From positions 14,818,001-14,882,000 of the forward strand of contig OZ017795.1 of the NCBI GenBank assembly GCA_963969395.1: a DNA stretch of 64,000 nucleotides. Direction: 5' to 3'. Positions 1 through 38,257 of this stretch are shown here, one piece after another. A program made the position numbers and the translations under genes. The notes under the pieces are model-generated. The model was given only the letters and a program-made list of their open reading frames with translations. It was not told where the DNA came from and made no database searches. This DNA comes from Pseudoscleropodium purum (Eukaryota > Streptophyta > Bryopsida > Hypnales > Brachytheciaceae). The stretch's first letter is position 1. Each line of letters starts with the position of its first letter.

Positions 1-1927
1 GATCCGGTGGAGCCGCAAACGAGGTGTCCGGAAGGATGTGGGTCTTCGATTGACCGGACACAACATCATACTGCAGCAAATAATCCAAAAAGGTCACCCA
101 AATCACGCTTCCCCGTGCGGTGCACCGGAACCAAGTCGATATCTTCGTAGGAACCTTATGGGGATTGATAAACATATAATCCCCCGGCGAATCACTATCC
201 CACATTGAGTGCATGCGCCTTGAATACTCTCTCTCGCTCTCAGCGAGATTACTACACCCAGTATATGGCATCTGCATCAGCAGTCGGCCCAAAGCCAAGT
301 CCGCACCCTCACGCAGTTGCAAAACGTAGAATTGAAAGGGCAAATAACCATATTGAGAATAACGATGTTCCGGATCGCTACGATCCGGACCTCGATCATT
401 CGGATCGTTTCCTCGCCTGCACTCGGCGTCCATAGTCAAGGATACGCTCAGTTCTGCAGGAATGATGGCGTACATGCTCCCCATGCATTCGACAATTCCA
501 ATCGCGTAGCTACCCAGCCCGAAACCTAAGTAGAAACGAAAATACAGCCTGAGATTCTTCGGGATGTAATTCCGAAGTTCGTACCGAACGGGAGGTTTCC
601 ATATCCCTGCTTCTTCGTCAATTTCGTACACCTTCACACAACCGTGTGTTCGGATATCTATATCTCTTGTACCTTCAAGTGGGGTGGAGTTTCCGGAAAC
701 TTCTAGCGCTGCAAAGTAGAGCTTCCCACCGACAATTGCGCTGGGTCCAAGACTGAACTCCCGTGAAAAAGGGAAAAAGGGAGAAAATCCCCATGGAGTG
801 GGTTCGGGAAAAGCTCGGCAAGTCCAACAGTTGGACGCGGACTTATAAACCAACAGAAAATTTCTGAAAGTGAGGATCACTTTGTACGCATTCGCCTTCT
901 CATCCGCAACCATGTGCGCTCGGAAGCCGACATAGCCCCATGCAGCACGCCCCAGATCTCGAGGATCCGCTGCTGGGAGAATCCGCCACTCTTTCGTCAA
1001 AGGATTGCTCACCAACAAACGTCTCCAAACCTGGTCTATGGAACAAAAGGAGGCTCGGTCCTGGCGCAACCAGGCTGCACAAACTTCCTCGCTCAACCGA
1101 GAAGCTATTGGTTGATCGAATTCATCCTCTTTGGGCGGAAGCTTGTCCACGAACAGCAAAAGCCCTCCGGCGCTGGCGATGAGCCAGTCGAAGTGAGGCT
1201 CGAATCCTCCCCCTGAAGGAACGGGAGGAAGGCTGTGAATCTCTCCTGATGAGTGATGGACGGCAGACCAAGACCAAGAGCCTGTCCATGCGCTCCCACA
1301 AGAGCATAACCAGGACTTCGTATCAGGAGTGCGCTCGCAGTTGTCACGATGGATCTGGAAGCGCAATGGGAAATACCAATCCTTCGTGTCGTCCTCCCAA
1401 CGAGTCTTTGCAGCGATCGGGAAGTGGTCGGACACCAAAGTTTTCCACGATTTGCTGACACGCTGCAATTGCACAAGCTCACGAGTCGTAAAGTCGCGAC
1501 TTATGTGCGAAAACAATGGGGCAATCACATCAGCGGGGTATGTGCTCGTGTCGATGCATCAGCGGGGTATGTGCTCGTGTCGATGCGCGACTTATCTGCA
1601 GGTCGCCAAGGGATTCATAATGAAAGACATTAGACTGGTCGGATCGGAAATGGGACCATAAGCTGGAATTCGAAAAGGACAAATGTAAACATCCACAAAA
1701 TTTAAGGTTAAAAAGGAGACATTTCTCGTCCAATGTATCGAGCAGTACGCTTTTCTTGGAAACGAACTCACATTATGATATCAGATTTCAGATTCTGAGA
1801 CGGCAATATGAGAAGCGCTATCTGGAAGTTCATGCATTTGGTTCCTGCAAAGTGCGAATTCAACGGTAGTGGGTGCGCAAGTACCTGCTTCCGTACGAGC
1901 TGGATCGGTTGCAGAACTGGTCGACAT
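1..1927 (-). CDS. F-box protein gene, left-arm copy; 3' end outside window; 5' frameshift
   Basis: Mirror copy of the F-box gene at 36,296-38,257. The inferred start exon is 1,885-1,927 (14 codons plus 1 base). The main exon runs from 1,595 down to position 1, with the last 11 residues and the stop beyond the window. The long frame from 1,528 to 1 encodes the rest of the F-box helices and the beta-propeller-like body. The 29-bp tandem duplication at 1,529-1,586 is present here too, so it predates the inverted duplication or was spread by gene conversion, and it breaks the frame between the start exon and the F-box. See the right-arm entry for the domain description. Confidence 0.65.
1529..1586. 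repeat. 29-bp tandem duplication, left-arm copy
   Basis: Two perfect, adjacent 29-bp units, mirror of 36,637-36,694. Because 29 is not a multiple of three, the duplication shifts the reading frame at the start of F-box exon 2. Confidence 0.95.
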
Positions 1928-1929
1928 AG

Positions 1930-4019
1930 CTGAAATCCACAGGACAAGGATAACCGCAACAAACGAACGAACTGAACATGGGCCCCTCAGGAATTGAGAT
2001 GAAATCAGAAGCTGAGCATGAAGAATAAAAAGAAAATCATATAATGAATGCAATGCAATGAGGATACTAGCAGCTTACTCTTAACTTCGCTTTTCTCTTA
2101 AAAGAACATTAATCCTATCGTCATTACTTTTTCACGCTAAGTTTCTGGATTCTACAACAGCATCTGGATTTCAATTCGATAGAGAACAGCAGCTGTTGGA
2201 AAGTCAAGGATAATCACTCGATACCAGAAAACGAAATCAGTTGTAGCAGTTTTCATTCTAGGAGAAATAGACTTTGATAAAAAGCCAAAAGGCCTTCAGG
2301 AGAGAATGCCAGCTTTCCTCACAGAAATAAATAAAGGCAAGGCTACAAAAAACTAAGATAAAAAATGCTAAGACCCACACCGACGACAGAGAGAATTGGA
2401 GAGACGAAATTATACGATACTACGACATCCCCAAAAGAGAACCCGCGGACAAAAAAATCGACTCCGACGACACACCAAGGGCTTCCATCCTTTTAACCGT
2501 ACAGTAAAATTAAATGCAAGTCATGAAAAGGGAAAGGAAAAGCTTATTACAATCAAAGGGTAAATCCCAACACTTCTCTTGACACAAATCTCTGCGAAAA
2601 GCTAGACGCGTACCTGGTCGTGGGTTAAAGCTCCTCCGCCTGCAAGAAATGAGCAGCTCAAGCTCAAGCTGCAGCGCCGATGAGGAATTGAAAGACAGAC
2701 GCTATAACCCCACGTCTGTCAAATATATTCCCGCTCCTACGAGAGTGAGTATCAGAACTAGAACCTGAACTAGAACCTCGCTGAACTAGAACCTGAACTT
2801 AGTTTCGAAGAGAGATAGGAAACTAGAGAAAATGGCCAGACAACTGCAACGTTGCAGCCAGGGCTCAACGACGAGGAAAGTCGGGAAACGAAGAGGGGCT
2901 GTGGGTCTTTATACTGGCCCAACTACGCCTCGGTAGTAGCCTCGGAAAAGCAGCTTATTCCAAGTCTCGACGGGGATTTGCAATACATGAACCGTGCACA
3001 TTGCTTGTCTGAGGAAAAAGGAATCGAGCAGTTTAATTCCATTCCCCGATACATAAAATAAATCCCCAGAACAGATCGAGGCCTCGGGAGTCACAATCCC
3101 CGCACTAAACGTAAAATTAAAGCTGCTAAGTTGTGTGCACTTCACCACCATTCTCTCTAGCGCGTCTCTTCGCCAGCTCCTTGACCCTCTCATTAAGTTG
3201 TCTATCACCTAAGCAAGCAATCGAGCAAAGCAGAAAATACCCTAGTATCTGATTCTTTCCTTCAGCTATCTTCAACTCGAACCTGAGCTATCAAACGACC
3301 ATATCAGGTTGTTTGCTTCCGTGATCATATATTCTTCTCTTGACAGCTTCCATTGTTGTGATTTGCGAGACAAATTCACACGAGGCGGGAAATAGTTGTG
3401 TTGATCTCCTGGTTACTCTTGGGACTTGGCAACCATGGGGAGAGTCGATTGGTTCGGAAAAGCATGTTCGACCTGCGGGATGCGTCTTCATTAGGTGGAG
3501 GTCCACCGAGCTCCAACTCTCTCCCACTTTCTGGACCTCTAGAAAAGCATCGCATGGATACTCCGCGAGATAACTCCTTGCAAACAAAGACGACCACCGA
3601 CTTGACATCAACACCTGATCATGCGTGTCGTCGACGCCGTTGTCCCATCTTCGGAGACGTCCGTGATCGCGCAGACAGATGGCACCTTTAGAATTGAAAT
3701 GCAATATGAAGTGCCAACGGCACCCGAAACCGAATGCATCTGGCGCTGTAGGTTGAGGCTAAGTTACTCGTGTGCATGTAGTCCAGCATACAAGGGCCAG
3801 TTGGGGTTCTAAATTCATAAGCGGGAGAAGAGTCGCACCCCATCATGGCTCCCGTCGTTCTGTTCGGGAGATGAACTCGTCCTATCAACAAAAAAACCTT
3901 ACTACCAAATTAATCTGCAATTATGGAAAAGAAACTACCCTTGATCTTTATATACGCTCATTTCTTCGCTCTAAATGGTGATGAATAGAGTACAAGTTCA
4001 CGAACTGGGAAAAGTTCGG
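1930..4019. other. Left-arm F-box leader and DHQS-to-F-box intergenic region
   Basis: Mirror of 34,204-36,293. It contains the inferred 5'UTR intron of the F-box gene (1,930-2,613), a TATA-like AATATATT at 2,722-2,729, a small array of repeated GTTCTAGTTCAG-type units at about 2,753-2,797, and the mirror of the candidate small gene (about 3,126-3,846). No other gene is recognised. Confidence 0.5.
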
Positions 4020-7000
4020 TTACTTCTCTACCACGAACTCTTGAATCTGAATACCCGTGTGGCGCGCTTTCTCTTGCAAACTCAACAGAAGTCGGTCTCC
4101 CAATTTCAAGCTGGTGACGGGGAGTGGTTTCGCAACCTTCTCATCTGCACAGATGCACATTCAAATGGAGACCACTAGACACAGATTCAAGTCGATTTCA
4201 CAAACTATCATGCATACACTCCACCGTCACATGCAAATCAACTGTCGTGGAATTCATAACAGGTGGCTACGCTGCCGACACTTACCTCCAGGGCCAACAA
4301 GGCAGACCGTTTCAGCATTTTGGAGCAACACACTATGCTTTTGGCCGTCCACGTCCACCTCGACAAGCAGCAAAGGTCTGGATTCAATTTTCACACGCCC
4401 AACCAAGACAGTCCGAGACCGCCCCATTGCGTCAACCACCAGTACTTGGCTGCCAGAATGCAGCTCAGACAGGTATGCGGTGCGGCCGCCGGCCGTAGCA
4501 ACGTAGGCATGCACTGGCCCCTGTTGGAAGGAACAGTAATGCAAGAAAAAGTTCTCGGGAATAAAGGAAAAGACACGCCATAGCAAACGCAGGTGGTCAA
4601 AAGGGAGTGCCAAACAGGTTCCGCATTACAAGGCCAAGCAGTTGAAACTCTACCTCGAGTTGCAACACCTGGTTTTTGCAAAGTCACCAACTGAGCACGA
4701 AGAAGCAAATCGGAGAGCAGAATGGAGTTCTCTGACACAACTTAATGAAAGACAAAGGCGACTTACAGCATTCACTCGAAAAGGTCGGGAGGCCACGTAG
4801 TTGCTTTCCAGGCATTCACAGTGTACCAAGAAGAGAGCTCTTGCAAAAGATCCCACCTGGGAGACCAATGCATAGTTTCAGGGGCTGACTTGCATCAAAT
4901 CAGCGCTTAGGAAAACCATTCATTTGCTAAAATGGATCAAACTTGGCGTAATGAGGAATGCAGATTTTGCGATTTGAGATCAGCATACCAGGAGCCCTTC
5001 TCCAGGATTCAATAGATTGCATAGGTCAACACAGACACGATCTCCCATTCCAACAGACTCTACTTGCGTGACTGTCGCCTCCTCCAGTGAAACTCGCATT
5101 GCTGAATCTTGCTTCTGTTTTAAATATGCCTGCGATTATAACAGCGCGATTACAATGTTGAAACAAGGGAGACCAAGGCGAAGAAATATGAAGAACTGAC
5201 CTCGGAGTACAAACAACCCGGGGTGGAACTCACAATAGTAAGGCAGGCGCTTTCTTAACTTTTCGAATCCATATGAATGGAAGTTACCTTTTTATATTGT
5301 AGGATATGAGATCATAGTTGGAAAGAAGATATTGAGAAGAATTAAATTGTATAAGTTTTATATCAATCATAAGAGTTTTGGGTACTCAAAAGTCATTTTA
5401 AGAACCAATAAGAAGAGATTTTTCTCAAACGGGGGAACCGATCAGCCCCTTAGGTTTCTTTTGTAATCGGTAAATTTTCTTATTTTTTAATTATCTTCTA
5501 AGAAGATCCTTCTAATAATGTCAGTTATTAAACTTCATTATTGTGTTCACCAATTTAACTATTCATGCTTCAGGATTTGTGTATTAGTATTCATCACCAT
5601 TCACCACCTAAGTGACTCAATTCCCTCCATGAAGCATTCAATCAATTGGAATTTAGGTTGCCTACACGTTGCAAGAATTCAACTCTTTGATTACCTTCAC
5701 AAAGCTAAAATTGGAGAATAATAGTATCATAGATACGGGCATGGACATAGGCATGGACAAACTTTGATCATTTGACATTTTTGCAATACTAGCTATGCAT
5801 CAAAAGTGATTGAAACTCTATCATTAATAAGCAATTGGTAGAATTAGAATTTAACAAAAAAGATTTCACTTTCAGGATTTTAATGTTCCTTATGAAACAT
5901 GAAGTGGAACACATACTTCTAAAATTGGACCTTCCTAGACAAGGTATTGAAATTTAGTAGAAATCTCAGCCTAGCTCCTCATTATAAAATCTTTATTAAA
6001 AGCTCTTTTGAGTTTTAACGCAATAACAAGTTTTCAAAATTGAAGTATTTAGCTATTTTAGCTCTTCTCTAAACGGTCCCCCTTCCATATTACAGAGTTG
6101 CCACCCCGGGACAAACAAACGCAATCGAAAGTTGTTTTTAAAGCAAACCACACAAACCTGCTCCACGGAGTGCATGGAAAACACTGGAGTGCAGAATCCC
6201 CAAACAATGGAAGGGACCCTAATACCTTGAGAGCAAATACTTCGGAAGGGTCATCGGTGTGCAGGACGACTCCATCAGTGCCCCTTTCAAGGGCTTCGAA
6301 ATAAGCCTGAGCATCACCTGCAGTGCTTGCTGTTGCATACAGAGCGGTGCTACTGTCCTGGAAAGCAGCCACCATGTTCTCAGCTGGAATGATCTACACC
6401 ATGGCAACATAACATGTCAGTTCAACACCTACAAAATCTGCCTCCACGATTTTAAAGAAGTAAAGGATTCGGAAGGACCCCATAGCACCTGTACCAGTTG
6501 ACGAACAAGTCTTGCTCCGATACAGTCGACATGCACCACTGGAAATCTCGAATTCCACAGGAAAAAACAGCAATGTCCAGTAAGAAGAGTAAGTGGGATA
6601 AGTGGCGAGAACCATCACCTGCCAATCAATTGCGTTCATGACCACGACTGCAGCCTTGTCCATCAAAGCAGGAAGCGAATCGAGCTGCTCGCCAGAGGCA
6701 ACATGGCCTAAAATGGCCACTTGCTTGTTCTCCGTGTCCAAGAATTGGTCACTCTCCAGGTAGAGTGGATCGATTTTCGCAAGAGCTGAAATTACAAATC
6801 GAAAACTCGCAAGCTAAGATGACATTGAAGAAGACCGCTAACGAACTGCACAGACATCAGCACGCAACACTTGCAGCTGCGCTCGGTAATACAAAACATG
6901 CTCTGTTAAGTACACCGCGCAGTAGCAATGAAGTTCCCATTCCCACAGGATCGTTGCTACGACAATGATAAATTTCAAATCAGCTGTCGCGTTCAAGTTT

Positions 7001-7762
7001 AGAGCACCGACATGTCCACTCGTCGGCAAGTGTCTTGGTCTCCGGGGTGAAGATGAACGTTGACCAGCCGCCTTCTACCGAAGCCGTCATCACATCCTTG
7101 CTCTTGGTCCATACCCACACCGTCTTCGCATTTGTTGCTGCCCGCGCAACAATCCCCGACCACGCTCTTGGGCTGGTCGTTCTTGCGGAGAATGCGCTGC
7201 TGCGGCTATTGCTCGACCTCAGGCGTACCAGAACTCCTACAATTGCCAACAAGATTGTCAATTTCCCATTCTAGGATACACGAAGTTACGAACCCTAATC
7301 TGCCTGTTTCGAGTCGGAATCCCACAAGCTGATTCGCGACTCCAATGTCAAGTTCGGAAAGAAAATTGAAAGCGAATTCGCTTGCATTTGCTCTGGAACT
7401 ATTCAAATCGATCTCTTCGAACTGGTCAGTTCTCCATTCTGTGGCGCGCACCGGGAGTTCTCAAACCCCAATTCGCATGTTCCTGATCCCTCCAATCGGA
7501 ATCCCCCAAGGTGATTCACGTCGCCAATTTCAAGTACGAATGAGAAATGGAAAGCGAAAGCGAGTTGGCCTCGCATTTTTACGGAAGCTACTGAGAATGA
7601 GCTGCTCGAGCTTTGAAATCGAGTCCGACAAGACACGCCGATACTAGTGAGAGCATTGATCGATACTAGCACGAGCAATGAAATTGAAGGAAGGTTCCTC
7701 GCGGCTAGCACTTCATTACCGACTGCTGTTGCCGGGGAGCTGGTCCATTTTGCCGAATGCAT
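4020..7762 (-). CDS. 3-dehydroquinate synthase II-like protein, chloroplast (left-arm copy)
   Basis: Exact mirror of the gene at 30,461-34,203. The minus-strand exons are 7,720-7,762, 7,012-7,236, 6,619-6,785, 6,226-6,393, 4,989-5,129, 4,767-4,856, 4,286-4,520 and 4,020-4,144. Together they give 1,194 nt, or 397 residues plus stop. All splice junctions and the translation are the same as in the right-arm gene, so both copies look intact. The two copies point away from the spacer, with their 5' ends inward. See the right-arm entry for domains and function. Confidence 0.85.
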
Positions 7763-7942
7763 TGCGCCCTCGATCTCTTCAGTTTCTATGTCCCAATTGT
7801 CCTCTCAATCTGGCGCTCCTGTGGCCACTTCCTCCGCTCTGAGAAATGCTACGGTGGCGAAGGAGATGGGAAACAAGTGGCCTCAGCACACAAGCTCAAT
7901 ACAGGAAGCGTGATTAGGTATCCCAACGCAACTTATCTTAAG

Positions 7943-8326
7943 TTATGGTAGCCGACCCATTTTCGACCACTTCAGCAATTCCGCATATCTGGAGCATAGG
8001 TTTTCTGACTGCAGGAATTTTCCCATGTATAGAAATAGGGTTCAGAAAGATTCCATATTTTTTCAGAATTTTATTTCTCAGATTTTTATTACTACAAAAT
8101 TTTTAGTTGAAGATTCTACTTGACCTATTCTTGTGATGTAGGCCTTCCTATTTCCAACCATAGGTTGGCTTTAAAATAAACAAAGACTGCAACCAATCTT
8201 AATGCGCCATGCCTGTGTTGTAAATTTTGCCACAATTAATGTCCTACTTTTCTCCTGCTAATTGGAAAGAGTGTATCCTAAATGACAGGAATGGGTCCCT
8301 GGTTGGAAATGGGTCAACTACCATAA
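7943..8326. mobile_element. 384-bp MITE with ~27-bp terminal inverted repeats (left-arm copy)
   Basis: Mirror of 29,897-30,280. Its termini read TTATGGTAG...CTACCATAA, with imperfect inverted repeats of about 27 bp. It sits about 180 bp upstream of the DHQS-like start codon. No coding capacity. Confidence 0.75.
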
Positions 8327-8469
8327 TCCCAAAAAGAAGGACCCATTATCACTGCTTTCCAGCCTCACTGTCCATCAATCTATTTTTTGTTGTTTTGTAG
8401 CTAGATATGAAAGAAATTTTTATGTTTATTTTTTTGAGATGAAATTATTTGTCTACTAGGGTAGTCTAC

Positions 8470-9280
8470 TCTTAACACTTGAAGGACCAAGGCCTTTTTT
8501 TTGCCAAAAACCACTCAAAATTGCCATTTCTTTGGCAAAAGGTGAAAAAAGAAAATTTCAATTCAATTTTTTTCACATCTATCCATAGGATCTTGCACCT
8601 AAATATTATGAGAATGTGTGTAAGAAATTTCAGAATTTTTTTGACCGCACAAATTGCATGATATCTACATTTAAAGTGGAAAAAACAATTTTTCAGGACA
8701 TTGCGGGACTTGATTTTTTAACTTTGAACATTTTTAACTTTAATTTTTTGCACTACAGCGTTTTGAGCTTTAAATCTTTATAGTATAAAATTGAGTTGAG
8801 AATTTATGGAACATTCAAGAAAACTTTATTTTATTCTTTAGAAAATTGTTAAGTAGAAGTAGGTACGAGATAGGAGGAAAATCTAAATTGTTAATATCTT
8901 TAAACTGAAATTAAAATGCACTAATCCCAATGGTGATATTGTTGTAGCAAGAAAGGTTGACTATGTGAAACTTTTTTTTTTTTAAATTGTAAGAATTGCA
9001 TTTAGAAATGAGTCCAACAAGGTATTTTTTCAAAAAGCTGCTCTAACTGCACGAAAAACAAGATTGTCCATAACTTTCTCAAAAAAAATCTAAATGGAAT
9101 GAATCAAAGCTTCACATGTCCAAAAAAATATAATCTATGAGGGAAAAAAAATTTTAAGTTTTAAAAGTGAAATTTTTGAAATTCTTTTCGCTCCCCTCCA
9201 TCCCTTGTTTTGAGCTTATTAGGACATTACTTTTGTTCCTGGGCAGCAATTGAGAAAGAATTATGTTCCCATGAAATATA
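8470..9280. repeat. AT-rich interspersed repeat at the inner end of the left arm
   Basis: Starts with TTAACACTTGAAGGACC and carries a core about poly-T and 'GCCAAAAACCACTCAAAATT' that recurs, diverged, in other places in the window. Its inverted partner is at about 28,940-29,755. The outer part (8,470-8,739) is almost identical between the arms, while the inner part (8,740-9,280) differs by many substitutions and small indels. The transition from identical arm to old divergence therefore lies inside this element. Confidence 0.7.
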
Positions 9281-12200
9281 CCAAATTTCAAGTTGAAAAA
9301 ACCAAAATCCTACTTTTGGTGAATTTCTACAATTAATGTTTGTGGTTTATAGAATATTTTATTGAAAGCAATTGGTGATGTGTTTTTTTAATTGGATTAG
9401 ATAGAAATGTAGGGATTGTCCACACACACCTCTTTCCTTCAACCAAGCATTTCCAAAAGCATTTTACAATTCTTTTTATAAGAATTTCTATGTTACAAGG
9501 ACAATGCCAAAATTTTTGTAAAATAGATATGTCTTTAATATAGTTAGATTTTTTTATTTGCACCTCACATAGTAACTAATTTTGCTAAAATCTAGTTAAT
9601 TGATATAGAGATATTTATTGTGCAATTGAATTTGGTCATATGACATGTCACATGGAAATTTTAATAGAAGGAATTGTGAATTCTTTTGAGGGATGCTCAT
9701 CAAAAAGATGAGGTGGATATGGATGTTTCCTACATATCTATGCAATCAAATTAAAAAATATTCATTACCAATTGTTCTCAATAAAATATTATACAAAACC
9801 ATGAATATTAACTTTAGAATTTCACAAGAAATGAAATTGAAATTTTTTGAAATTGAAATTTGGTATGCTTGATTGGGATTCCTTAAGGAAACTATGATAA
9901 TTGTGCTTACAAAAATATCAATTATATTGCACATTGTACAAATAAAATGTGAATGGCTCAAATTGGCCAAATTTTAGATCATTCATTGTACCCGACTTGC
10001 ACAAGAAGTGTGATGCCAGGGTTGGTAATCCCTATTTGGGTAACATAACTTAATTGCAAGACACTAAAGCATTCCCACAAAGTGGGCCCAATAGGGTAAT
10101 CTGGGGGTTCACCAAGGATAAAAGTAAAAAAATTCCTATTTTGAATTGTGTCTAGTGTATGTTGTAGTCCTCTCCAATGGTCTCAAAACCCTTTTATTGA
10201 AATTTGTGGAAAGCTATTACCATGTGTAGATTACTAAGTCAGATTAATATTGTTGATTTTTGAAACGAATTGAAGAGTATTTTAGGAATTTTTGGTTTCA
10301 ATTTGTTGTTTTGGTAGTCCAATTGGATGTTTTTGGCTTTTCAATTGTCTAAGTTATAGTCCTTTTGTTGTCCAATTTAATGGTTGGTGAGGTTGAATTT
10401 CAAGTTGGTAGTTTGAGTGTGAATGGAAGTGTCAAGTCGGTAATCAGTTGGTTGGTTTTATCAGTGCCAAGTTGATGAGTCGTTAGTGAATGCCAACTGG
10501 GTTGTGTTTATTTTTTAGTTAATTGTTTTTAGTCGAATTGGATGGATGTCGTTTGGTTCTATATTTGAGTGTCCTGCGAAATCCCAAATTGGAGGTTGTT
10601 GTCAGTTGGCTGTCTTCTCCAAATTGTAACTGTCTATGGGAGTTGTATTAAGGCGATTTGGAATTCATTTGTTTCTTACCTGCTGTTGAATGAGTCCAGT
10701 GAGAGTCCCATCCTAGTTGTGATGCGTATTTCGTTTTCTTGTGTGTGAGTCCAAGTGGAAAGTTATATTTGTGTGATCCAAGGTCGGGTCAGTTTGAGTT
10801 TGTATTCCTAGTCGAGAGCATGTGTATCTGCCAATACATGGTAGTGAGTGTGTTTGTGTAATTTGGGAGGATGATGTGATGGAGTGAATCCTAGTTGGAA
10901 GGTGAATTTGTGTCCTAGTTGAAATGGTTGTTTGTGTGTATTTGGATGCTGTGAAATGTGATTTATATCTATATGTTTAAAAATGGAATGATGTCAAATT
11001 GGAAGAGTATGGAAGTTGAATAGTCTGAAGTTAAGAGCAGGAAAGTGAAACTGACAGTTAGTTGAAGCTGAAGAGATGTCAGAGCCTAGTTGGAATTTAG
11101 GAAGTGTGAGAATTAGATTCCAATTAGGAGGAGAATGAGAGCATAAAGGAAAAATTTACAATGTTAGTTGTGAAAAGTGTAATAGGAAGTAGTGCTGTGA
11201 GAAAGAATTCTATGTATAACAGTGATTTTATTCACCAATTTGGTTAATCAAAGCAAAGTTTATATCAAATTGGTTGTTTGTAGTACAGTGTTGGATGTGA
11301 ATGTGATGGTGTTAATGAATTAGCGGTTAATAAAGAGCAGAAGTGTATGTTAAGTTAAATGTTCCAATTGCAAAACAAATTGTGTTGTGAATGTCATTGT
11401 AGTATAACCAGTGAGAAGTCCAAATTGTGAATCAGTCGAATGAATTTTGGTTATACTTTAATGTGTGTGTGTTGGTAAAATTAAACGTTTGTTTAATTCC
11501 AAATCGGAATGTTGAGAGTTAAATTGTAAACAGTCCAAATTGGAATTTCATGTAGAGTTTGAATGTTGTCGAGTTTGCCGAGTTGGTATAATCTGTGAGT
11601 TATGTACGAATACTGAATTAGAAGTAGGAGTCCAGACTGTCTTGTGACAGTGTTGTGACGGCGCTGTAAACCAAATCGGGAGAAAAGGCTGAATACCGAA
11701 TCAGAAAAATAAAAGAATAAATAAAATATTAAAAATATTAAAAAAAACTTAATTAAAGATAACGAAGTTGAAAAGACTATAAATGAAGAAAAAAAGAATG
11801 TAAAAGATAAAGGAAGATAAAAAGAAAGATGAAGATTGCAAAAGAAGGATATAAGGATTTAAGTGAAAAAGAACATAAAGATTAATTTGGGAGAATTTCT
11901 TACCTTTGTGGCCTTTAAGAGTGGAGTGAAAAATCTAGCAATTAGCCTTAACGCATGAAGAAATCATTTATATATGTGGTTTAAAGAACATATTTCCTAC
12001 AATATTCTATGATTGCAATGACTTGTAAGAATTTAAACTAGAAGTAATCCTGTTGAATTAGCCTCCCTAGGAACGAACTTTACTATTAGCTTAGGTTTGG
12101 TTATTTATAATTAGCACCTAAGTTTATCTACACTATGTGAAAGGGGAGGTATTATTGTGAAATTAATTTTTTTTAGGTAAAGAAGCGTACATAAACACGT

Positions 12201-12860: not shown

Positions 12861-12863
12861 CAA

Positions 12864-17532: not shown

Positions 17533-17535
17533 AAC

Positions 17536-17762: not shown

Positions 17763-17765
17763 AAC

Positions 17766-20890: not shown

Positions 20891-20973
20891 GGAAGCTGCA
20901 ATAGTAAGCGCAGATACAAGAAGAAGCTGCAGCCGAAATTCTCAAAAGAATAGATATGCCTACGCATGTAGGA

Positions 20974-21539: not shown

Positions 21540-21889
21540 GATGTGCACAGACATGCAGGTAACAGATGGCACATTTTTGGCTACACTGGGGTGGTGCATC
21601 CTAAGCGCTCGGCTACCTTCTTTAACCTTCACCCCTTCCCATCTCTTCAAGAATTCAGACCTTGAAACATCTTGATGTCCAGCAAGGGATTGTAGAAATT
21701 GTAGAAGTATATTGTTGAGAGTTCATTCATTTGCATCAAAGGTCGCAGTTTGAAGAGAGATTGCATATATCCCGTAGTTCAGTAGGTCCGTTGAGCTATT
21801 GGTTTTGTATCGAAGTCAGGGTTGAGGAACTCGTCGTGTTGTGGAATTGTAACGATTCGGAAAGCAGGGAGCTTGGTTTTTGAGTGTTT

Positions 21890-28800: not shown

Positions 28801-28939
28801 AGCTTGCTTTAACCTCTAAATAACAATTGTCCCTTCAAGGGACAAATGGGATTTTGGGTAGGTACCTATGGGTTGAAATGTTTTCCTTATTTCTTAAAAC
28901 TTTTTTTGATGATAGAAAAATTACTTATCTAGACGGGAA
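25838..28939. other. LEA 3' flank and AT-rich repeats
   Basis: The LEA 3'UTR probably occupies the first few hundred bases. Frames at 26,239-26,895 have no recognisable motif. From about 27,720 to 28,260 there is a copy of the window's main AT-rich repeat family (it shares TTTTCCTATATGTTGTACAA and ATGGCAGTTTTGGAGCATTT with copies near 43.6-44.0 kb), ending in CATTTAGAGGTTAA. Confidence 0.4.
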
Positions 28940-29755
28940 CATAATTTTTTTTTCAATCAGTGCCCAGGAACAAAAGTTAGGCCCAAATAAACTCAAAACA
29001 AGGGATGGAGGGGGGCGGGGGGGGGGGGGGGGGGGAGCAAAAACAATTTCAAAAATTTCAATTTTAAAACTTAAATTTTTTTTCCCTCATAGATTATATT
29101 TTTTTGGACATGTGAAGCTTTGATTCATTCCATTTGGATTTTTTATGAGAAAGTTATGGACAATCTTGTTCTTCGCGCAGTTAGAGCAACTTTTTGAAAA
29201 AATAAGTTGTAGGATTCATTTCTAAATGCAATTTTTACAATTTCTCAAAAAAAAAAAGTTTCACATAGTCAACCTTTCTTGCTAGAACAATATCACTATT
29301 GGGATTAGTGCATTTTAATTTCAATTTAAAGATATTAATAATTTAGATTTTCCTCCTATCTCGTACCTACTCCTACTTAACAATTTTCTAAAGAATAAAA
29401 ATAAAGTTTTTTTGAGTGTTTTGAATTTTTATAAATTCTCAACTCAATTTTATACTATAAAGATTTAAAGCTCAAAATGTTGTAGTTAAAAATGTTCAAA
29501 GTTAAAAAATCAAGTCCCGCAATGTCCTGAAAAATTGTTTTTTCCACTTTAAATGTAGATATCATGCGATTTGTGCGGTCAAAAAAATTCTGAAATTTCT
29601 TACACACATTCTCATAATATTTAGGTGCAAGATCCTATGGATAGATGTGAAAAAAATTGAATTGAAATTTTCTTTTTTCACCTTTTGCCAAAGAAATGGC
29701 AATTTTGAGTGGTTTTTGGCAAAAAAAAGGCCTTGGTCCTTCAAGTGTTAAGAGT
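28940..29755. repeat. AT-rich interspersed repeat at the inner end of the right arm
   Basis: Inverted partner of 8,470-9,280. The part inside the arm (29,484-29,755) is almost identical to its partner; the part toward the spacer is clearly diverged but alignable to about 28,945. Confidence 0.7.
29010..29035 (+). repeat. Poly-G tract
   Basis: 26 bases that are all G except one C at 29,016. The homologous position in the left repeat (about 9,190) has only four consecutive C on the + strand, so the run expanded on this side only. It lies about 450 bp from the point where the arms become identical. Confidence 0.9.
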
Positions 29756-29896
29756 AGACTACCCTAGTAGACAAATAATTTCATCTCAAAAAAATAAACA
29801 TAAAAATTTCTTTCATATCTAGCTACAAAACAACAAAAAATAGATTGATGGACAGTGAGGCTGGAAAGCAGTGATAATGGGTCCTTCTTTTTGGGA

Positions 29897-30280
29897 TTAT
29901 GGTAGTTGACCCATTTCCAACCAGGGACCCATTCCTGTCATTTAGGATACACTCTTTCCAATTAGCAGGAGAAAAGTAGGACATTAATTGTGGCAAAATT
30001 TACAACACAGGCATGGCGCATTAAGATTGGTTGCAGTCTTTGTTTATTTTAAAGCCAACCTATGGTTGGAAATAGGAAGGCCTACATCACAAGAATAGGT
30101 CAAGTAGAATCTTCAACTAAAAATTTTGTAGTAATAAAAATCTGAGAAATAAAATTCTGAAAAAATATGGAATCTTTCTGAACCCTATTTCTATACATGG
30201 GAAAATTCCTGCAGTCAGAAAACCTATGCTCCAGATATGCGGAATTGCTGAAGTGGTCGAAAATGGGTCGGCTACCATAA
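29897..30280. mobile_element. 384-bp MITE with ~27-bp terminal inverted repeats (right-arm copy)
   Basis: The ends read TTATGGTAGTTGACCCATTT and, on the other strand, TTATGGTAGCCGACCCATTT, imperfect inverted repeats of about 27 bp. The flanking TA on each side could be a target duplication (Tc1/mariner-like) or part of the repeat. A clearly related copy lies at 63,230-63,594 and a more diverged one at about 51,570-51,922. It ends about 180 bp upstream of the DHQS-like ATG and so lies in that gene's promoter or leader. Confidence 0.75.
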
Positions 30281-30460
30281 CTTAAGATAAGTTGCGTTGG
30301 GATACCTAATCACGCTTCCTGTATTGAGCTTGTGTGCTGAGGCCACTTGTTTCCCATCTCCTTCGCCACCGTAGCATTTCTCAGAGCGGAGGAAGTGGCC
30401 ACAGGAGCGCCAGATTGAGAGGACAATTGGGACATAGAAACTGAAGAGATCGAGGGCGCA

Positions 30461-33400
30461 ATGCATTCGGCAAAATGGACCAGCTCCCCGGCAACAGCAG
30501 TCGGTAATGAAGTGCTAGCCGCGAGGAACCTTCCTTCAATTTCATTGCTCGTGCTAGTATCGATCAATGCTCTCACTAGTATCGGCGTGTCTTGTCGGAC
30601 TCGATTTCAAAGCTCGAGCAGCTCATTCTCAGTAGCTTCCGTAAAAATGCGAGGCCAACTCGCTTTCGCTTTCCATTTCTCATTCGTACTTGAAATTGGC
30701 GACGTGAATCACCTTGGGGGATTCCGATTGGAGGGATCAGGAACATGCGAATTGGGGTTTGAGAACTCCCGGTGCGCGCCACAGAATGGAGAACTGACCA
30801 GTTCGAAGAGATCGATTTGAATAGTTCCAGAGCAAATGCAAGCGAATTCGCTTTCAATTTTCTTTCCGAACTTGACATTGGAGTCGCGAATCAGCTTGTG
30901 GGATTCCGACTCGAAACAGGCAGATTAGGGTTCGTAACTTCGTGTATCCTAGAATGGGAAATTGACAATCTTGTTGGCAATTGTAGGAGTTCTGGTACGC
31001 CTGAGGTCGAGCAATAGCCGCAGCAGCGCATTCTCCGCAAGAACGACCAGCCCAAGAGCGTGGTCGGGGATTGTTGCGCGGGCAGCAACAAATGCGAAGA
31101 CGGTGTGGGTATGGACCAAGAGCAAGGATGTGATGACGGCTTCGGTAGAAGGCGGCTGGTCAACGTTCATCTTCACCCCGGAGACCAAGACACTTGCCGA
31201 CGAGTGGACATGTCGGTGCTCTAAACTTGAACGCGACAGCTGATTTGAAATTTATCATTGTCGTAGCAACGATCCTGTGGGAATGGGAACTTCATTGCTA
31301 CTGCGCGGTGTACTTAACAGAGCATGTTTTGTATTACCGAGCGCAGCTGCAAGTGTTGCGTGCTGATGTCTGTGCAGTTCGTTAGCGGTCTTCTTCAATG
31401 TCATCTTAGCTTGCGAGTTTTCGATTTGTAATTTCAGCTCTTGCGAAAATCGATCCACTCTACCTGGAGAGTGACCAATTCTTGGACACGGAGAACAAGC
31501 AAGTGGCCATTTTAGGCCATGTTGCCTCTGGCGAGCAGCTCGATTCGCTTCCTGCTTTGATGGACAAGGCTGCAGTCGTGGTCATGAACGCAATTGATTG
31601 GCAGGTGATGGTTCTCGCCACTTATCCCACTTACTCTTCTTACTGGACATTGCTGTTTTTTCCTGTGGAATTCGAGATTTCCAGTGGTGCATGTCGACTG
31701 TATCGGAGCAAGACTTGTTCGTCAACTGGTACAGGTGCTATGGGGTCCTTCCGAATCCTTTACTTCTTTAAAATCGTGGAGGCAGATTTTGTAGGTGTTG
31801 AACTGACATGTTATGTTGCCATGGTGTAGATCATTCCAGCTGAGAACATGGTGGCTGCTTTCCAGGACAGTAGCACCGCTCTGTATGCAACAGCAAGCAC
31901 TGCAGGTGATGCTCAGGCTTATTTCGAAGCCCTTGAAAGGGGCACTGATGGAGTCGTCCTGCACACCGATGACCCTTCCGAAGTATTTGCTCTCAAGGTA
32001 TTAGGGTCCCTTCCATTGTTTGGGGATTCTGCACTCCAGTGTTTTCCATGCACTCCGTGGAGCAGGTTTGTGTGGTTTGCTTTAAAAACAACTTTCGATT
32101 GCGTTTGTTTGTCCCGGGGTGGCAACTCTGTAATATGGAAGGGGGACCGTTTAGAGAAGAGCTAAAATAGCTAAATACTTCAATTTTGAAAACTTGTTAT
32201 TGCGTTAAAACTCAAAAGAGCTTTTAATAAAGATTTTATAATGAGGAGCTAGGCTGAGATTTCTACTAAATTTCAATACCTTGTCTAGGAAGGTCCAATT
32301 TTAGAAGTATGTGTTCCACTTCATGTTTCATAAGGAACATTAAAATCCTGAAAGTGAAATCTTTTTTGTTAAATTCTAATTCTACCAATTGCTTATTAAT
32401 GATAGAGTTTCAATCACTTTTGATGCATAGCTAGTATTGCAAAAATGTCAAATGATCAAAGTTTGTCCATGCCTATGTCCATGCCCGTATCTATGATACT
32501 ATTATTCTCCAATTTTAGCTTTGTGAAGGTAATCAAAGAGTTGAATTCTTGCAACGTGTAGGCAACCTAAATTCCAATTGATTGAATGCTTCATGGAGGG
32601 AATTGAGTCACTTAGGTGGTGAATGGTGATGAATACTAATACACAAATCCTGAAGCATGAATAGTTAAATTGGTGAACACAATAATGAAGTTTAATAACT
32701 GACATTATTAGAAGGATCTTCTTAGAAGATAATTAAAAAATAAGAAAATTTACCGATTACAAAAGAAACCTAAGGGGCTGATCGGTTCCCCCGTTTGAGA
32801 AAAATCTCTTCTTATTGGTTCTTAAAATGACTTTTGAGTACCCAAAACTCTTATGATTGATATAAAACTTATACAATTTAATTCTTCTCAATATCTTCTT
32901 TCCAACTATGATCTCATATCCTACAATATAAAAAGGTAACTTCCATTCATATGGATTCGAAAAGTTAAGAAAGCGCCTGCCTTACTATTGTGAGTTCCAC
33001 CCCGGGTTGTTTGTACTCCGAGGTCAGTTCTTCATATTTCTTCGCCTTGGTCTCCCTTGTTTCAACATTGTAATCGCGCTGTTATAATCGCAGGCATATT
33101 TAAAACAGAAGCAAGATTCAGCAATGCGAGTTTCACTGGAGGAGGCGACAGTCACGCAAGTAGAGTCTGTTGGAATGGGAGATCGTGTCTGTGTTGACCT
33201 ATGCAATCTATTGAATCCTGGAGAAGGGCTCCTGGTATGCTGATCTCAAATCGCAAAATCTGCATTCCTCATTACGCCAAGTTTGATCCATTTTAGCAAA
33301 TGAATGGTTTTCCTAAGCGCTGATTTGATGCAAGTCAGCCCCTGAAACTATGCATTGGTCTCCCAGGTGGGATCTTTTGCAAGAGCTCTCTTCTTGGTAC

Positions 33401-34203
33401 ACTGTGAATGCCTGGAAAGCAACTACGTGGCCTCCCGACCTTTTCGAGTGAATGCTGTAAGTCGCCTTTGTCTTTCATTAAGTTGTGTCAGAGAACTCCA
33501 TTCTGCTCTCCGATTTGCTTCTTCGTGCTCAGTTGGTGACTTTGCAAAAACCAGGTGTTGCAACTCGAGGTAGAGTTTCAACTGCTTGGCCTTGTAATGC
33601 GGAACCTGTTTGGCACTCCCTTTTGACCACCTGCGTTTGCTATGGCGTGTCTTTTCCTTTATTCCCGAGAACTTTTTCTTGCATTACTGTTCCTTCCAAC
33701 AGGGGCCAGTGCATGCCTACGTTGCTACGGCCGGCGGCCGCACCGCATACCTGTCTGAGCTGCATTCTGGCAGCCAAGTACTGGTGGTTGACGCAATGGG
33801 GCGGTCTCGGACTGTCTTGGTTGGGCGTGTGAAAATTGAATCCAGACCTTTGCTGCTTGTCGAGGTGGACGTGGACGGCCAAAAGCATAGTGTGTTGCTC
33901 CAAAATGCTGAAACGGTCTGCCTTGTTGGCCCTGGAGGTAAGTGTCGGCAGCGTAGCCACCTGTTATGAATTCCACGACAGTTGATTTGCATGTGACGGT
34001 GGAGTGTATGCATGATAGTTTGTGAAATCGACTTGAATCTGTGTCTAGTGGTCTCCATTTGAATGTGCATCTGTGCAGATGAGAAGGTTGCGAAACCACT
34101 CCCCGTCACCAGCTTGAAATTGGGAGACCGACTTCTGTTGAGTTTGCAAGAGAAAGCGCGCCACACGGGTATTCAGATTCAAGAGTTCGTGGTAGAGAAG
34201 TAA
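30461..34203 (+). CDS. 3-dehydroquinate synthase II-like protein, chloroplast (right-arm copy)
   Basis: Eight exons: 30,461-30,503, 30,987-31,211, 31,438-31,604, 31,830-31,997, 33,094-33,234, 33,367-33,456, 33,703-33,937 and 34,079-34,203. All are GT-AG and in phase, giving 397 residues plus stop. Residues 1 to about 50 are a Ser/Arg/Ala-rich chloroplast-transit-like region. The mature part starts near [20 protein letters not shown] and matches, as I recall it, the plant homologue of archaeal DHQ synthase II (Arabidopsis At3g28760 type). Conserved blocks include [12 protein letters not shown], the stretch from [12 protein letters not shown] to [47 protein letters not shown] and a C-terminal [14 protein letters not shown]. 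The archaeal enzyme makes 3-dehydroquinate for aromatic amino acids; the role of the plant protein is not established, because plants also have a classical DHQ synthase. The intron-2 donor (GTCGGT) is weak, but the degenerate copy at 20.7 kb has GTAAGT there, which confirms the junction. Exon 1 is the least certain part. Confidence 0.88.
31998..33093 (+). other. Long AT-rich intron 4 of the DHQS-like gene
   Basis: At 1.1 kb this is by far the longest intron of the gene; the others are about 130-480 bp. Its core (about 32,165-32,960) is much more AT-rich than the rest and may be a decayed insertion, though I see no clear terminal repeats. The mirror intron in the left arm is 5,130-6,225. Confidence 0.5.
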
Positions 34204-34268
34204 CCGAACTTTTCCCAGTTCGTGAACTTGTACTCTATTCATCACCATTTAGAGCGAAGAAATGAGCG

Positions 34269-34277
34269 TATATAAAG
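34269..34277 (+). promoter_or_regulatory. TATA-like box after the DHQS-like gene
   Basis: TATATAAAG lies 66 bp after the DHQS-like stop codon and about 100 bp upstream of an ATG at 34,377. It is a good TATA match and could serve the candidate small gene that follows. No further support. Confidence 0.3.
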
Positions 34278-34376
34278 ATCAAGGGTAGTTTCTTTTCCAT
34301 AATTGCAGATTAATTTGGTAGTAAGGTTTTTTTGTTGATAGGACGAGTTCATCTCCCGAACAGAACGACGGGAGCC

Positions 34377-35097
34377 ATGATGGGGTGCGACTCTTCTCCC
34401 GCTTATGAATTTAGAACCCCAACTGGCCCTTGTATGCTGGACTACATGCACACGAGTAACTTAGCCTCAACCTACAGCGCCAGATGCATTCGGTTTCGGG
34501 TGCCGTTGGCACTTCATATTGCATTTCAATTCTAAAGGTGCCATCTGTCTGCGCGATCACGGACGTCTCCGAAGATGGGACAACGGCGTCGACGACACGC
34601 ATGATCAGGTGTTGATGTCAAGTCGGTGGTCGTCTTTGTTTGCAAGGAGTTATCTCGCGGAGTATCCATGCGATGCTTTTCTAGAGGTCCAGAAAGTGGG
34701 AGAGAGTTGGAGCTCGGTGGACCTCCACCTAATGAAGACGCATCCCGCAGGTCGAACATGCTTTTCCGAACCAATCGACTCTCCCCATGGTTGCCAAGTC
34801 CCAAGAGTAACCAGGAGATCAACACAACTATTTCCCGCCTCGTGTGAATTTGTCTCGCAAATCACAACAATGGAAGCTGTCAAGAGAAGAATATATGATC
34901 ACGGAAGCAAACAACCTGATATGGTCGTTTGATAGCTCAGGTTCGAGTTGAAGATAGCTGAAGGAAAGAATCAGATACTAGGGTATTTTCTGCTTTGCTC
35001 GATTGCTTGCTTAGGTGATAGACAACTTAATGAGAGGGTCAAGGAGCTGGCGAAGAGACGCGCTAGAGAGAATGGTGGTGAAGTGCACACAACTTAG
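34377..35097 (+). CDS. Candidate small spliced gene of unknown function
   Basis: Exon-like open pieces join in phase. Piece A, 34,647-34,750, includes DAFLEVQKVGESWSSVDLHL. Piece B, 34,815-34,940, includes WKLSREEYMITEANNLIWSF. Piece C, 35,015-35,097, includes QLNERVKELAKRRARENGGE and ends in TAG. A to B uses GTCGAA...CAG (64 nt, short) and B to C uses GTTCGA...TTAG (74 nt). Upstream, a frame from about 34,490 to 34,608 reads like protein (ILKVPSVCAITDVSEDGTT) but I could not join it cleanly to piece A. The true start is unknown; 34,377 is only the first ATG after the TATA-like box. I recognise no family. It may be a real gene, a relic, or chance. The mirror copy is at 3,126-3,846 on the minus strand. 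Confidence 0.3.
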
Positions 35098-36295
35098 CAG
35101 CTTTAATTTTACGTTTAGTGCGGGGATTGTGACTCCCGAGGCCTCGATCTGTTCTGGGGATTTATTTTATGTATCGGGGAATGGAATTAAACTGCTCGAT
35201 TCCTTTTTCCTCAGACAAGCAATGTGCACGGTTCATGTATTGCAAATCCCCGTCGAGACTTGGAATAAGCTGCTTTTCCGAGGCTACTACCGAGGCGTAG
35301 TTGGGCCAGTATAAAGACCCACAGCCCCTCTTCGTTTCCCGACTTTCCTCGTCGTTGAGCCCTGGCTGCAACGTTGCAGTTGTCTGGCCATTTTCTCTAG
35401 TTTCCTATCTCTCTTCGAAACTAAGTTCAGGTTCTAGTTCAGCGAGGTTCTAGTTCAGGTTCTAGTTCTGATACTCACTCTCGTAGGAGCGGGAATATAT
35501 TTGACAGACGTGGGGTTATAGCGTCTGTCTTTCAATTCCTCATCGGCGCTGCAGCTTGAGCTTGAGCTGCTCATTTCTTGCAGGCGGAGGAGCTTTAACC
35601 CACGACCAGGTACGCGTCTAGCTTTTCGCAGAGATTTGTGTCAAGAGAAGTGTTGGGATTTACCCTTTGATTGTAATAAGCTTTTCCTTTCCCTTTTCAT
35701 GACTTGCATTTAATTTTACTGTACGGTTAAAAGGATGGAAGCCCTTGGTGTGTCGTCGGAGTCGATTTTTTTGTCCGCGGGTTCTCTTTTGGGGATGTCG
35801 TAGTATCGTATAATTTCGTCTCTCCAATTCTCTCTGTCGTCGGTGTGGGTCTTAGCATTTTTTATCTTAGTTTTTTGTAGCCTTGCCTTTATTTATTTCT
35901 GTGAGGAAAGCTGGCATTCTCTCCTGAAGGCCTTTTGGCTTTTTATCAAAGTCTATTTCTCCTAGAATGAAAACTGCTACAACTGATTTCGTTTTCTGGT
36001 ATCGAGTGATTATCCTTGACTTTCCAACAGCTGCTGTTCTCTATCGAATTGAAATCCAGATGCTGTTGTAGAATCCAGAAACTTAGCGTGAAAAAGTAAT
36101 GACGATAGGATTAATGTTCTTTTAAGAGAAAAGCGAAGTTAAGAGTAAGCTGCTAGTATCCTCATTGCATTGCATTCATTATATGATTTTCTTTTTATTC
36201 TTCATGCTCAGCTTCTGATTTCATCTCAATTCCTGAGGGGCCCATGTTCAGTTCGTTCGTTTGTTGCGGTTATCCTTGTCCTGTGGATTTCAGCT
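35098..36295 (+). promoter_or_regulatory. F-box gene promoter and 5' leader
   Basis: A TATA-like AATATATT at 35,494-35,501 precedes a pyrimidine-rich leader. A good donor CCAG/GTACGC at 35,609/35,610 and the acceptor TTTCAG at 36,293, two bases before the inferred ATG, outline a 684-bp 5'UTR intron. A second TATA-like TATAAAG lies near 35,310. A small array of repeated GTTCTAGTTCAG-type units occupies 35,426-35,470. Confidence 0.45.
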
Positions 36296-38257
36296 ATGTC
36301 GACCAGTTCTGCAACCGATCCAGCTCGTACGGAAGCAGGTACTTGCGCACCCACTACCGTTGAATTCGCACTTTGCAGGAACCAAATGCATGAACTTCCA
36401 GATAGCGCTTCTCATATTGCCGTCTCAGAATCTGAAATCTGATATCATAATGTGAGTTCGTTTCCAAGAAAAGCGTACTGCTCGATACATTGGACGAGAA
36501 ATGTCTCCTTTTTAACCTTAAATTTTGTGGATGTTTACATTTGTCCTTTTCGAATTCCAGCTTATGGTCCCATTTCCGATCCGACCAGTCTAATGTCTTT
36601 CATTATGAATCCCTTGGCGACCTGCAGATAAGTCGCGCATCGACACGAGCACATACCCCGCTGATGCATCGACACGAGCACATACCCCGCTGATGTGATT
36701 GCCCCATTGTTTTCGCACATAAGTCGCGACTTTACGACTCGTGAGCTTGTGCAATTGCAGCGTGTCAGCAAATCGTGGAAAACTTTGGTGTCCGACCACT
36801 TCCCGATCGCTGCAAAGACTCGTTGGGAGGACGACACGAAGGATTGGTATTTCCCATTGCGCTTCCAGATCCATCGTGACAACTGCGAGCGCACTCCTGA
36901 TACGAAGTCCTGGTTATGCTCTTGTGGGAGCGCATGGACAGGCTCTTGGTCTTGGTCTGCCGTCCATCACTCATCAGGAGAGATTCACAGCCTTCCTCCC
37001 GTTCCTTCAGGGGGAGGATTCGAGCCTCACTTCGACTGGCTCATCGCCAGCGCCGGAGGGCTTTTGCTGTTCGTGGACAAGCTTCCGCCCAAAGAGGATG
37101 AATTCGATCAACCAATAGCTTCTCGGTTGAGCGAGGAAGTTTGTGCAGCCTGGTTGCGCCAGGACCGAGCCTCCTTTTGTTCCATAGACCAGGTTTGGAG
37201 ACGTTTGTTGGTGAGCAATCCTTTGACGAAAGAGTGGCGGATTCTCCCAGCAGCGGATCCTCGAGATCTGGGGCGTGCTGCATGGGGCTATGTCGGCTTC
37301 CGAGCGCACATGGTTGCGGATGAGAAGGCGAATGCGTACAAAGTGATCCTCACTTTCAGAAATTTTCTGTTGGTTTATAAGTCCGCGTCCAACTGTTGGA
37401 CTTGCCGAGCTTTTCCCGAACCCACTCCATGGGGATTTTCTCCCTTTTTCCCTTTTTCACGGGAGTTCAGTCTTGGACCCAGCGCAATTGTCGGTGGGAA
37501 GCTCTACTTTGCAGCGCTAGAAGTTTCCGGAAACTCCACCCCACTTGAAGGTACAAGAGATATAGATATCCGAACACACGGTTGTGTGAAGGTGTACGAA
37601 ATTGACGAAGAAGCAGGGATATGGAAACCTCCCGTTCGGTACGAACTTCGGAATTACATCCCGAAGAATCTCAGGCTGTATTTTCGTTTCTACTTAGGTT
37701 TCGGGCTGGGTAGCTACGCGATTGGAATTGTCGAATGCATGGGGAGCATGTACGCCATCATTCCTGCAGAACTGAGCGTATCCTTGACTATGGACGCCGA
37801 GTGCAGGCGAGGAAACGATCCGAATGATCGAGGTCCGGATCGTAGCGATCCGGAACATCGTTATTCTCAATATGGTTATTTGCCCTTTCAATTCTACGTT
37901 TTGCAACTGCGTGAGGGTGCGGACTTGGCTTTGGGCCGACTGCTGATGCAGATGCCATATACTGGGTGTAGTAATCTCGCTGAGAGCGAGAGAGAGTATT
38001 CAAGGCGCATGCACTCAATGTGGGATAGTGATTCGCCGGGGGATTATATGTTTATCAATCCCCATAAGGTTCCTACGAAGATATCGACTTGGTTCCGGTG
38101 CACCGCACGGGGAAGCGTGATTTGGGTGACCTTTTTGGATTATTTGCTGCAGTATGATGTTGTGTCCGGTCAATCGAAGACCCACATCCTTCCGGACACC
38201 TCGTTTGCGGCTCCACCGGATCTGTCCTACAGGCCTAGCTTCTCCATGAAGCCTTAA
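36296..38257 (+). CDS. F-box protein with propeller-like body; start exon out of frame with F-box
   Basis: The inferred exon 1 is 36,296-36,338 (MSTSSATDPARTEA plus 1 base) and exon 2 is 36,628-38,257, with a 289-bp GTACTT...CTGCAG intron. Exon 2 holds an open frame ending at 38,257 that encodes an F-box (YPADVIAPLFSHISRDFTTR, then ELVQLQRVSKSWKTLV) followed by about 480 residues with Trp/Gly-rich blocks such as SNPLTKEWRILP, typical of plant F-box proteins with kelch- or FBA-like beta-propellers. Such proteins recruit substrates to SCF ubiquitin ligases. A perfect 29-bp tandem duplication at 36,637-36,694 puts the F-box frame out of phase with exon 1. As read, translation from exon 1 stops after 37 codons at TGA 36,696-36,698. 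With one unit the phases would fit exactly. No ATG in the long frame precedes the F-box; the first in-frame Met is about 200 codons in. So either this is a recent pseudogene or another start or transcript exists. Confidence 0.72.
36637..36694 (+). repeat. 29-bp tandem duplication at the start of F-box exon 2
   Basis: Two perfect units, 36,637-36,665 and 36,666-36,694, each starting GCATCGACACGAGCACATAC. The duplication adds 29 bases, shifts the frame and brings a TGA (36,662-36,664) into the F-box frame just upstream of the F-box. Confidence 0.97.

What the first reader, a model, noticed from the sequence alone, without database searches (positions are those of the whole stretch)
1..38222. 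Giant near-perfect inverted duplication carrying two genes per arm
Arms of at least 8.7 kb flank a 20.7-kb spacer, with coordinates mirroring without net indels and only one base difference found, near the inner end. Such identity means a very recent duplication, ongoing arm-to-arm gene conversion (as in sex-chromosome palindromes), or an assembly duplication. If real, the DHQS-II-like gene is present in two intact copies at one locus.
Basis: partly seen in the sequence, partly recalled or inferred. Interest (0 to 1): 0.9.

Follow-up and report, generated by a model that had tools for sequence, protein, structure and literature searches.

The report
Old mirrored duplication, recently copied over
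A plant (probably moss) chromosome carries the same two-gene stretch twice as mirror images; traces at both ends suggest the duplication is old and that one copy was recently overwritten by the other, so the two gene sets became identical again.

Summary
The inverted duplication is real in the assembly, but larger and more structured than described. Arms run from window -921 to 9270 and 28935 to 39144 (10.2 kb each) around a 19.7-kb spacer. A 9,457-bp core has zero differences. Outside it, still-homologous arm ends have diverged: 36 mismatches in 616 bp inside, 3 in 119 bp outside. The inner ends lie in one transposon: the two are sisters among 30 sampled copies (bootstrap 100) yet 6.45% apart. 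So the duplication is old, and the core's identity is best explained by recent long-tract gene conversion. A third, colinear copy on contig C42 (7.0% diverged outside genes) lacks both transposons, marks the right arm as the original, and carries decayed versions of both genes. Other linked gene pairs that I sampled are near-identical mainly when inverted, on four other contigs. Known relatives: mammalian Y/X and willow W palindromes, worm inverted repeats, near-identical tandem genes in Physcomitrella. Reads and related genomes were unavailable, so assembly error is unlikely but not excluded.

The parts
1..9270 (+). Left arm (continues 921 bp to the left of the window)
   Evidence: BLASTN of the extended contig: -921..9270 against 39144..28935
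28935..39144 (-). Right arm, inferred to be the original copy
   Evidence: its inner flank is colinear with the C42 copy
1..8654 (+). Left half of the perfectly identical core (from -802)
   Evidence: 9,457 of 9,457 bases equal
29569..39025 (-). Right half of the perfectly identical core
8655..9270 (+). Diverged inner end of the left arm, inside a transposon copy
   Evidence: 36 mismatches, 50 gapped positions; tree
28935..29568 (-). Diverged inner end of the right arm, inside the same transposon insertion
39026..39144 (-). Diverged outer end of the right arm (left partner lies at -921..-803, outside the window)
   Evidence: 3 mismatches in 119 bp
28809..29751 (.). Transposon copy 1 in the right arm, flanked by TTAA; absent from the C42 copy. 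Family of thousands of candidates in the genome
   Evidence: TTAA read by eye
8472..9270 (.). Transposon copy 1 in the left arm; the last ~125 bp present in the right arm are missing
29891..30282 (.). Second insertion (about 385-bp repeat) in the right arm, absent from the C42 copy; left partner 7941-8332
30953..34203 (+). DHQS-II (PF01959) gene, right arm; start approximate, several exons
4020..7270 (-). DHQS-II gene, left arm (mirror coordinates)
36665..38257 (+). F-box-like gene, right arm: main open frame of 530 codons; start probably in an upstream exon
1..1558 (-). F-box-like gene, left arm (3' end lies 34 bp outside the window)
   Evidence: C1:14817969-14819525
9271..28934 (.). Spacer, 19.7 kb

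Best explanation
An old inverted duplication on one chromosome was recently re-homogenised by gene conversion. Steps: (1) a segment with a DHQS-II and an F-box-like gene came to lie on two chromosomes (C1 and C42); (2) two transposons inserted into the C1 copy (the present right arm); (3) that copy, transposons included, was duplicated in inverted orientation about 20 kb away (left arm, broken inside the first transposon); (4) the arms drifted apart to about 6%; (5) recently, one arm templated repair of the other over at least 9.46 kb, erasing differences and leaving diverged homologous stubs at both ends. Shown by sequence: identical core, diverged ends, sister transposon halves, colinear C42 copy without the insertions. 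Inferred: that the cause was homologous-recombination repair, that it was one or few events, which arm was donor, and any benefit in keeping genes intact.
For: Zero differences in 9,457 bp against 36 mismatches in 616 bp inside and 3 in 119 bp outside; 3/119 versus 0/9457 gives P 1.9e-6 and both ends together P 1e-45. The inner change-over falls within one transposon copy (0/183 versus 36/616, P 1.3e-4), so sequence class does not explain it. Left and right transposon ends are sisters among 30 sequences (UFBoot 100), share 12 states seen in at most 1 of the 28 others, and differ by 38/589 = 6.45% against 10.8% or more to their next nearest; each is also the other's best hit in the genome search. 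The C42 copy is colinear past the right arm's inner end and lacks both insertions. The 95% upper limit of core divergence is 0.032%, about 0.5% of the end divergence.
Against: No reads, no second individual and no related genome were available. Only 28 of more than 5,000 candidate transposon copies entered the tree, and the search scored 40. The outer diverged end is only 119 bp with 3 differences. A 9.46-kb tract is long for one conversion event, although minimum tracts up to 9,023 bp were inferred in human palindrome P6 (passages of PMC3723533). Donor direction is not resolved: of the two outer sites that C42 covers, one change lies in each arm.
Confidence: 0.8

Rival explanations
1. Very recent inverted duplication: the arms are identical because they are young; the diverged ends are independent or secondarily altered transposon copies.
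For: The core has no difference at all. The inner end lies in a very abundant transposon, where ectopic exchange with another copy could bring in differences.
Against: The two inner ends are sisters with 12 nearly exclusive shared states spread along the segment, so neither was replaced by one of the sampled copies. The outer end, which is not this transposon, is also diverged.
Confidence: 0.09
2. Assembly artefact: one real copy placed twice, or two arms made identical by consensus building or polishing.
For: Not testable here without reads; perfect identity over 9.46 kb can arise from collapsed or over-polished repeats. The other identical inverted pairs in this assembly could share such a cause.
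Against: The arms have different flanks and diverged homologous ends, there is a 19.7-kb spacer, and there is no N in 124 kb. Fold-back chimeric reads would give adjoining arms (general knowledge). A step from 0% to about 6% is not what polishing would leave.
Confidence: 0.08
3. The segment moves as part of a mobile element, and the arms are two recent insertions of it.
For: Three copies on two chromosomes with transposons at the edges.
Against: Only three copies of the segment were found. No terminal repeats common to the three copies were seen in the edge alignments, and the ends do not coincide: the C42 homology stops near R 39071 while the arms share sequence to 39144. I did not search for such ends systematically.
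Confidence: 0.03

Closest known systems
Gene-converting palindromes of human Y and mammalian X chromosomes (e.g. P6)
   Same: Inverted arms with near-perfect identity and genes, a spacer, and conversion tracts that can reach kilobases: mean minimum 2,068 bp and up to 9,023 bp in P6 (abstract and passages of PMC3723533)
   Different: Conversion there was shown with many individuals and related species; here it is inferred from one genome. Sex linkage is unknown here, and similar pairs lie on several contigs.
Palindromes on the willow (Salix purpurea) W chromosome
   Same: A plant; conserved stretches of about 20 kb in inverted arms, inferred to be older than their identity by transposon dating (abstract and passages of PMC7023750)
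   Different: Four arms in a sex-determining region; relatives were used as a test.
Long inverted repeats with gene pairs in Caenorhabditis
   Same: Inverted gene pairs with up to 100% identity, argued to be old and maintained, gene conversion proposed (passages of PMC1803023)
   Different: Arms of about 2 kb and spacers of hundreds of bases; structure conserved between species.
Near-identical tandemly arrayed genes in the moss Physcomitrella
   Same: Linked duplicates that are nearly identical, attributed to gene conversion in a plant with very active homologous recombination (passages of PMC3045890, and PMC3729371)
   Different: The passages I saw do not speak of orientation, arm ends or 10-kb arms.

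Membership tests
Gene-converting palindrome (large inverted repeat homogenised by conversion) | Two inverted arms with at least 99.9% identity over kilobases | tested here: met
   9,457 of 9,457 bases equal
Gene-converting palindrome (large inverted repeat homogenised by conversion) | Arms older than their identity implies | tested here: met
   Inner ends are sister transposon halves 6.45% apart; outer end 3/119
Gene-converting palindrome (large inverted repeat homogenised by conversion) | Genes inside the arms free of evident damage | tested here: met
   F-box-like frame of 530 codons without a stop in both arms; recognisable DHQS-II exons read through to the terminal stop. Two PF01959 matches per arm contain a stop where the match runs past an exon edge; no transcript evidence
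Gene-converting palindrome (large inverted repeat homogenised by conversion) | Conversion seen by comparing individuals or related species | not testable with these tools
   No relatives of this genome are held
Sex-chromosome palindrome | Location in a non-recombining sex-linked region | not testable with these tools
   No sex or recombination data; comparable pairs on C40, C41, C45, C47
Palindromic assembly artefact | Arms adjoining or with identical flanks; reads not spanning | tested here: inconclusive
   Flanks differ and a 19.7-kb spacer exists; reads not available

The most novel reading that the evidence does not exclude
In this genome, homologous recombination continually homogenises linked duplicates, and near-identical ones survive only in inverted orientation, because exchange between direct repeats deletes the DNA between them while exchange between inverted repeats merely flips it. 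Inverted gene pairs would then act as self-repairing pairs on ordinary chromosomes, and the lone copy on C42, without a partner, decayed.
Probability: 0.3. Interest if true: 0.65.

Novelty: new member of a known kind. Interest (0 to 1): 0.45.

Why it matters
Gene conversion between inverted arms is best known from sex chromosomes. A clear case in a probably haploid-dominant plant, with end stubs that separate age of duplication from age of identity, gives a handle on how long conversion tracts are and whether inverted gene pairs are self-repairing. If the orientation bias seen in two of three sampled families holds genome-wide, mosses would be a good system for testing why near-identical linked duplicates tend to be inverted. 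It also warns that identity alone does not date plant duplications.

Tried and rejected
Recent duplication with independent transposon insertions: rejected by the tree. A first tree had some copies in the wrong orientation and was redone; both joined the two arms.

A second inverted structure on C42 beside the third copy (blocks of 81-90% outside, 99.05% over 2.5 kb inside) looked like another case, but its 2.5-kb part is a repeat with at least 40 copies, so I do not use it.

Linked pairs (up to 100 kb) with equal profile scores: 9 of 39 inverted, 1 of 54 direct (P 0.0015). I had missed two inverted, unequal P450 pairs; corrected 9 of 41 and 1 of 54 (P 0.0020). Pairs within clusters are not independent, and equal score is not equal DNA: the inverted LHC pair at C40 38.31/38.33 Mb scores equal but is 95.3%, the direct one at C40 43.96/43.98 Mb 95.8%. 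P450 gave no equal pair in either orientation. The F-box list was not in the test; apart from the arms no linked pair there had equal scores. Inversion is not sufficient: LHC at C40 44.02 Mb is inverted and 86% to the query.

Organism: literature searches for a 313-Mb moss genome gave no match; the one genome paper checked by passages has 408.8 Mb (PMC11704416). Moss affinity rests on moss-like gene content and on one LHC protein whose best single-domain solved structures are 8htu and 7xqp, which I recall to be from Physcomitrium patens; a longer multi-domain chain, 9vfj_2, scored higher.

I looked for an earlier description of orientation-dependent homogenisation in mosses and saw none in the top listings shown; subscription journals are mostly not held.

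Full report
What is there. The window is C1:14818001-14882000 of a 313-Mb assembly in 52 contigs with no relatives held. With 40 kb to the left and 20 kb to the right added, the inverted arms run from -921 to 9270 and from 39144 to 28935 in window coordinates. Between L -802 and 8654 (R 39025 to 29569) all 9,457 bases agree. Beyond this core the arms are still alignable but diverged: 36 mismatches and 50 gapped positions in L 8655-9270, and 3 mismatches in L -921..-803. Beyond that no alignment between the arms was reported. There is no N in the 124 kb.

Why this pattern means conversion. If the arms were simply young, the ends would be as identical as the core. The inner change-over lies inside one transposon copy: 0 differences in its first 183 bp, 36 in the next 616 (P 1.3e-4), so it is not a matter of sequence class. 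I asked whether the two inner ends might be unrelated insertions of a family that has more than 5,000 candidate places. They are not, as far as sampled: in a tree of the two ends with 28 other copies they are sisters (UFBoot 100), share 12 states found in at most one of the 28 others, and differ by 38 of 589 sites (6.45%), whereas their next nearest copies are at 12.4% and 10.8%. They descend from one insertion that was duplicated with the arm and has aged since. The core's 95% upper limit of divergence is 0.032%, about 0.5% of that. The outer end agrees (3/119 against 0/9457, P 1.9e-6).

History from the third copy. C42:15341225-15349903 matches the arms from R 30283 to 39071 at about 90% including gaps, with 393 of 5,606 non-coding sites differing (7.0%), against 34 of 1,111 in recognisable DHQS-II exons and 95 of 1,537 in the F-box frame. 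It continues colinearly past the right arm's inner end (R 28606-28812 = C42 15340623-15340829) and has neither the 943-bp element at R 28809-29751, which is flanked by TTAA, nor the one at R 29891-30282. R 28606-28812 also resembles other repeats, more weakly. The left arm lacks about 125 bp at the end of that element. So the right arm is the original and the left one the copy. On C42 the F-box frame has stop codons at three places in the arm's frame, a 2-bp gap and a 1-bp insertion, and one DHQS-II exon has a 1-bp gap. Of the two outer differences that C42 covers, one is a change in the left arm and one in the right, so donor direction stays open.

Genes. The F-box-like gene has a frame of 530 codons in both arms; its F-box match is weak (PF12937, 19.2 bits against a cut-off of 24.3). 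The DHQS-II gene (PF01959) shows exons through to a terminal stop. The genome has 29 PF01959 matches that I group into 8 loci: both arms, C42, two on C46, and one each on C43, C44 and C47. Some of those matches contain stops where they run past exon edges, in the arms too; splice sites were not verified. The spacer holds a degraded piece of the gene's 5' part at 20044-20766, about 70% alike, with no PF01959 match.

Is it a single oddity? No, as far as sampled. Among light-harvesting genes, inverted pairs compared by DNA, chosen because their profile scores were equal or close, gave 100% (C40 89/99 kb, later 2,730 of 2,730 comparable bases with the inner end not reached), 100% (C47, 801 bp), 99.9%, 98.6%, 97.4% and 95.3%; three direct pairs gave 95.8%, 94.8% and 93.0%. 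Among chalcone synthases, one inverted pair on C41 is 100% over 1,251 bp and one on C45 differs by about one base in 1,101, judged from its score. Across three families, 9 of 41 linked inverted pairs and 1 of 54 direct pairs had equal profile scores (P 0.0020, corrected table). P450 genes gave none. The sample is small, hand-picked and clustered, and equal score is only a proxy.

Mechanism. I think repair by homologous recombination between the arms copied at least 9.46 kb from one to the other, in one long event or several. In human palindrome P6, minimum tracts up to 9,023 bp were inferred (passages of PMC3723533). The best studied moss is noted for recombination-based gene targeting (start of the abstract of PMC4990234 in the listing) and for near-identical tandem genes attributed to conversion (passages). 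That direct repeats would be lost by deletion while inverted ones persist is general knowledge and my inference for the orientation bias.

Limits. Without reads an assembly error cannot be excluded, though diverged homologous ends, different flanks and a 19.7-kb spacer are not what such errors usually leave. Without relatives, conversion is inferred from one genome. The organism is not identified; moss affinity is an inference.

Noticed in passing
window 20044-20766: Degraded piece of the 5' part of a DHQS-II gene in the spacer, about 70% like the right arm, same strand
   Followed up: partly
window 23681-25837 (+): 718-codon frame with many WDATKQKAGE-like repeats; LEA_4 and Apolipoprotein matches below Pfam's cut-offs
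   Followed up: no
window 59093-60181 (+): Single-frame Bestrophin_2 (PF25539) gene, E 5e-79
   Followed up: no
C42:15318174-15340618 (L014-L016): Another inverted structure beside the third copy: mirrored blocks of 81-90% and a 2.5-kb part at 99.05% that belongs to a repeat of at least 40 copies
   Followed up: partly
C40:88451-91200 and 97880-100629 (L055, L056, L071-L074): Light-harvesting gene pair in inverted orientation, 2,730 of 2,730 comparable bases equal; inner end not reached
   Followed up: partly
C45:13.10-13.25 Mb: Nested inverted chalcone synthase pairs: partners have equal scores within each inverted pair, while neighbours differ slightly
   Followed up: partly
G000, PF01959 loci on C1, C42, C43, C44, C46, C47: DHQS-II family with about 8 loci in a plant genome; its role in plants is unclear to me
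   Followed up: no
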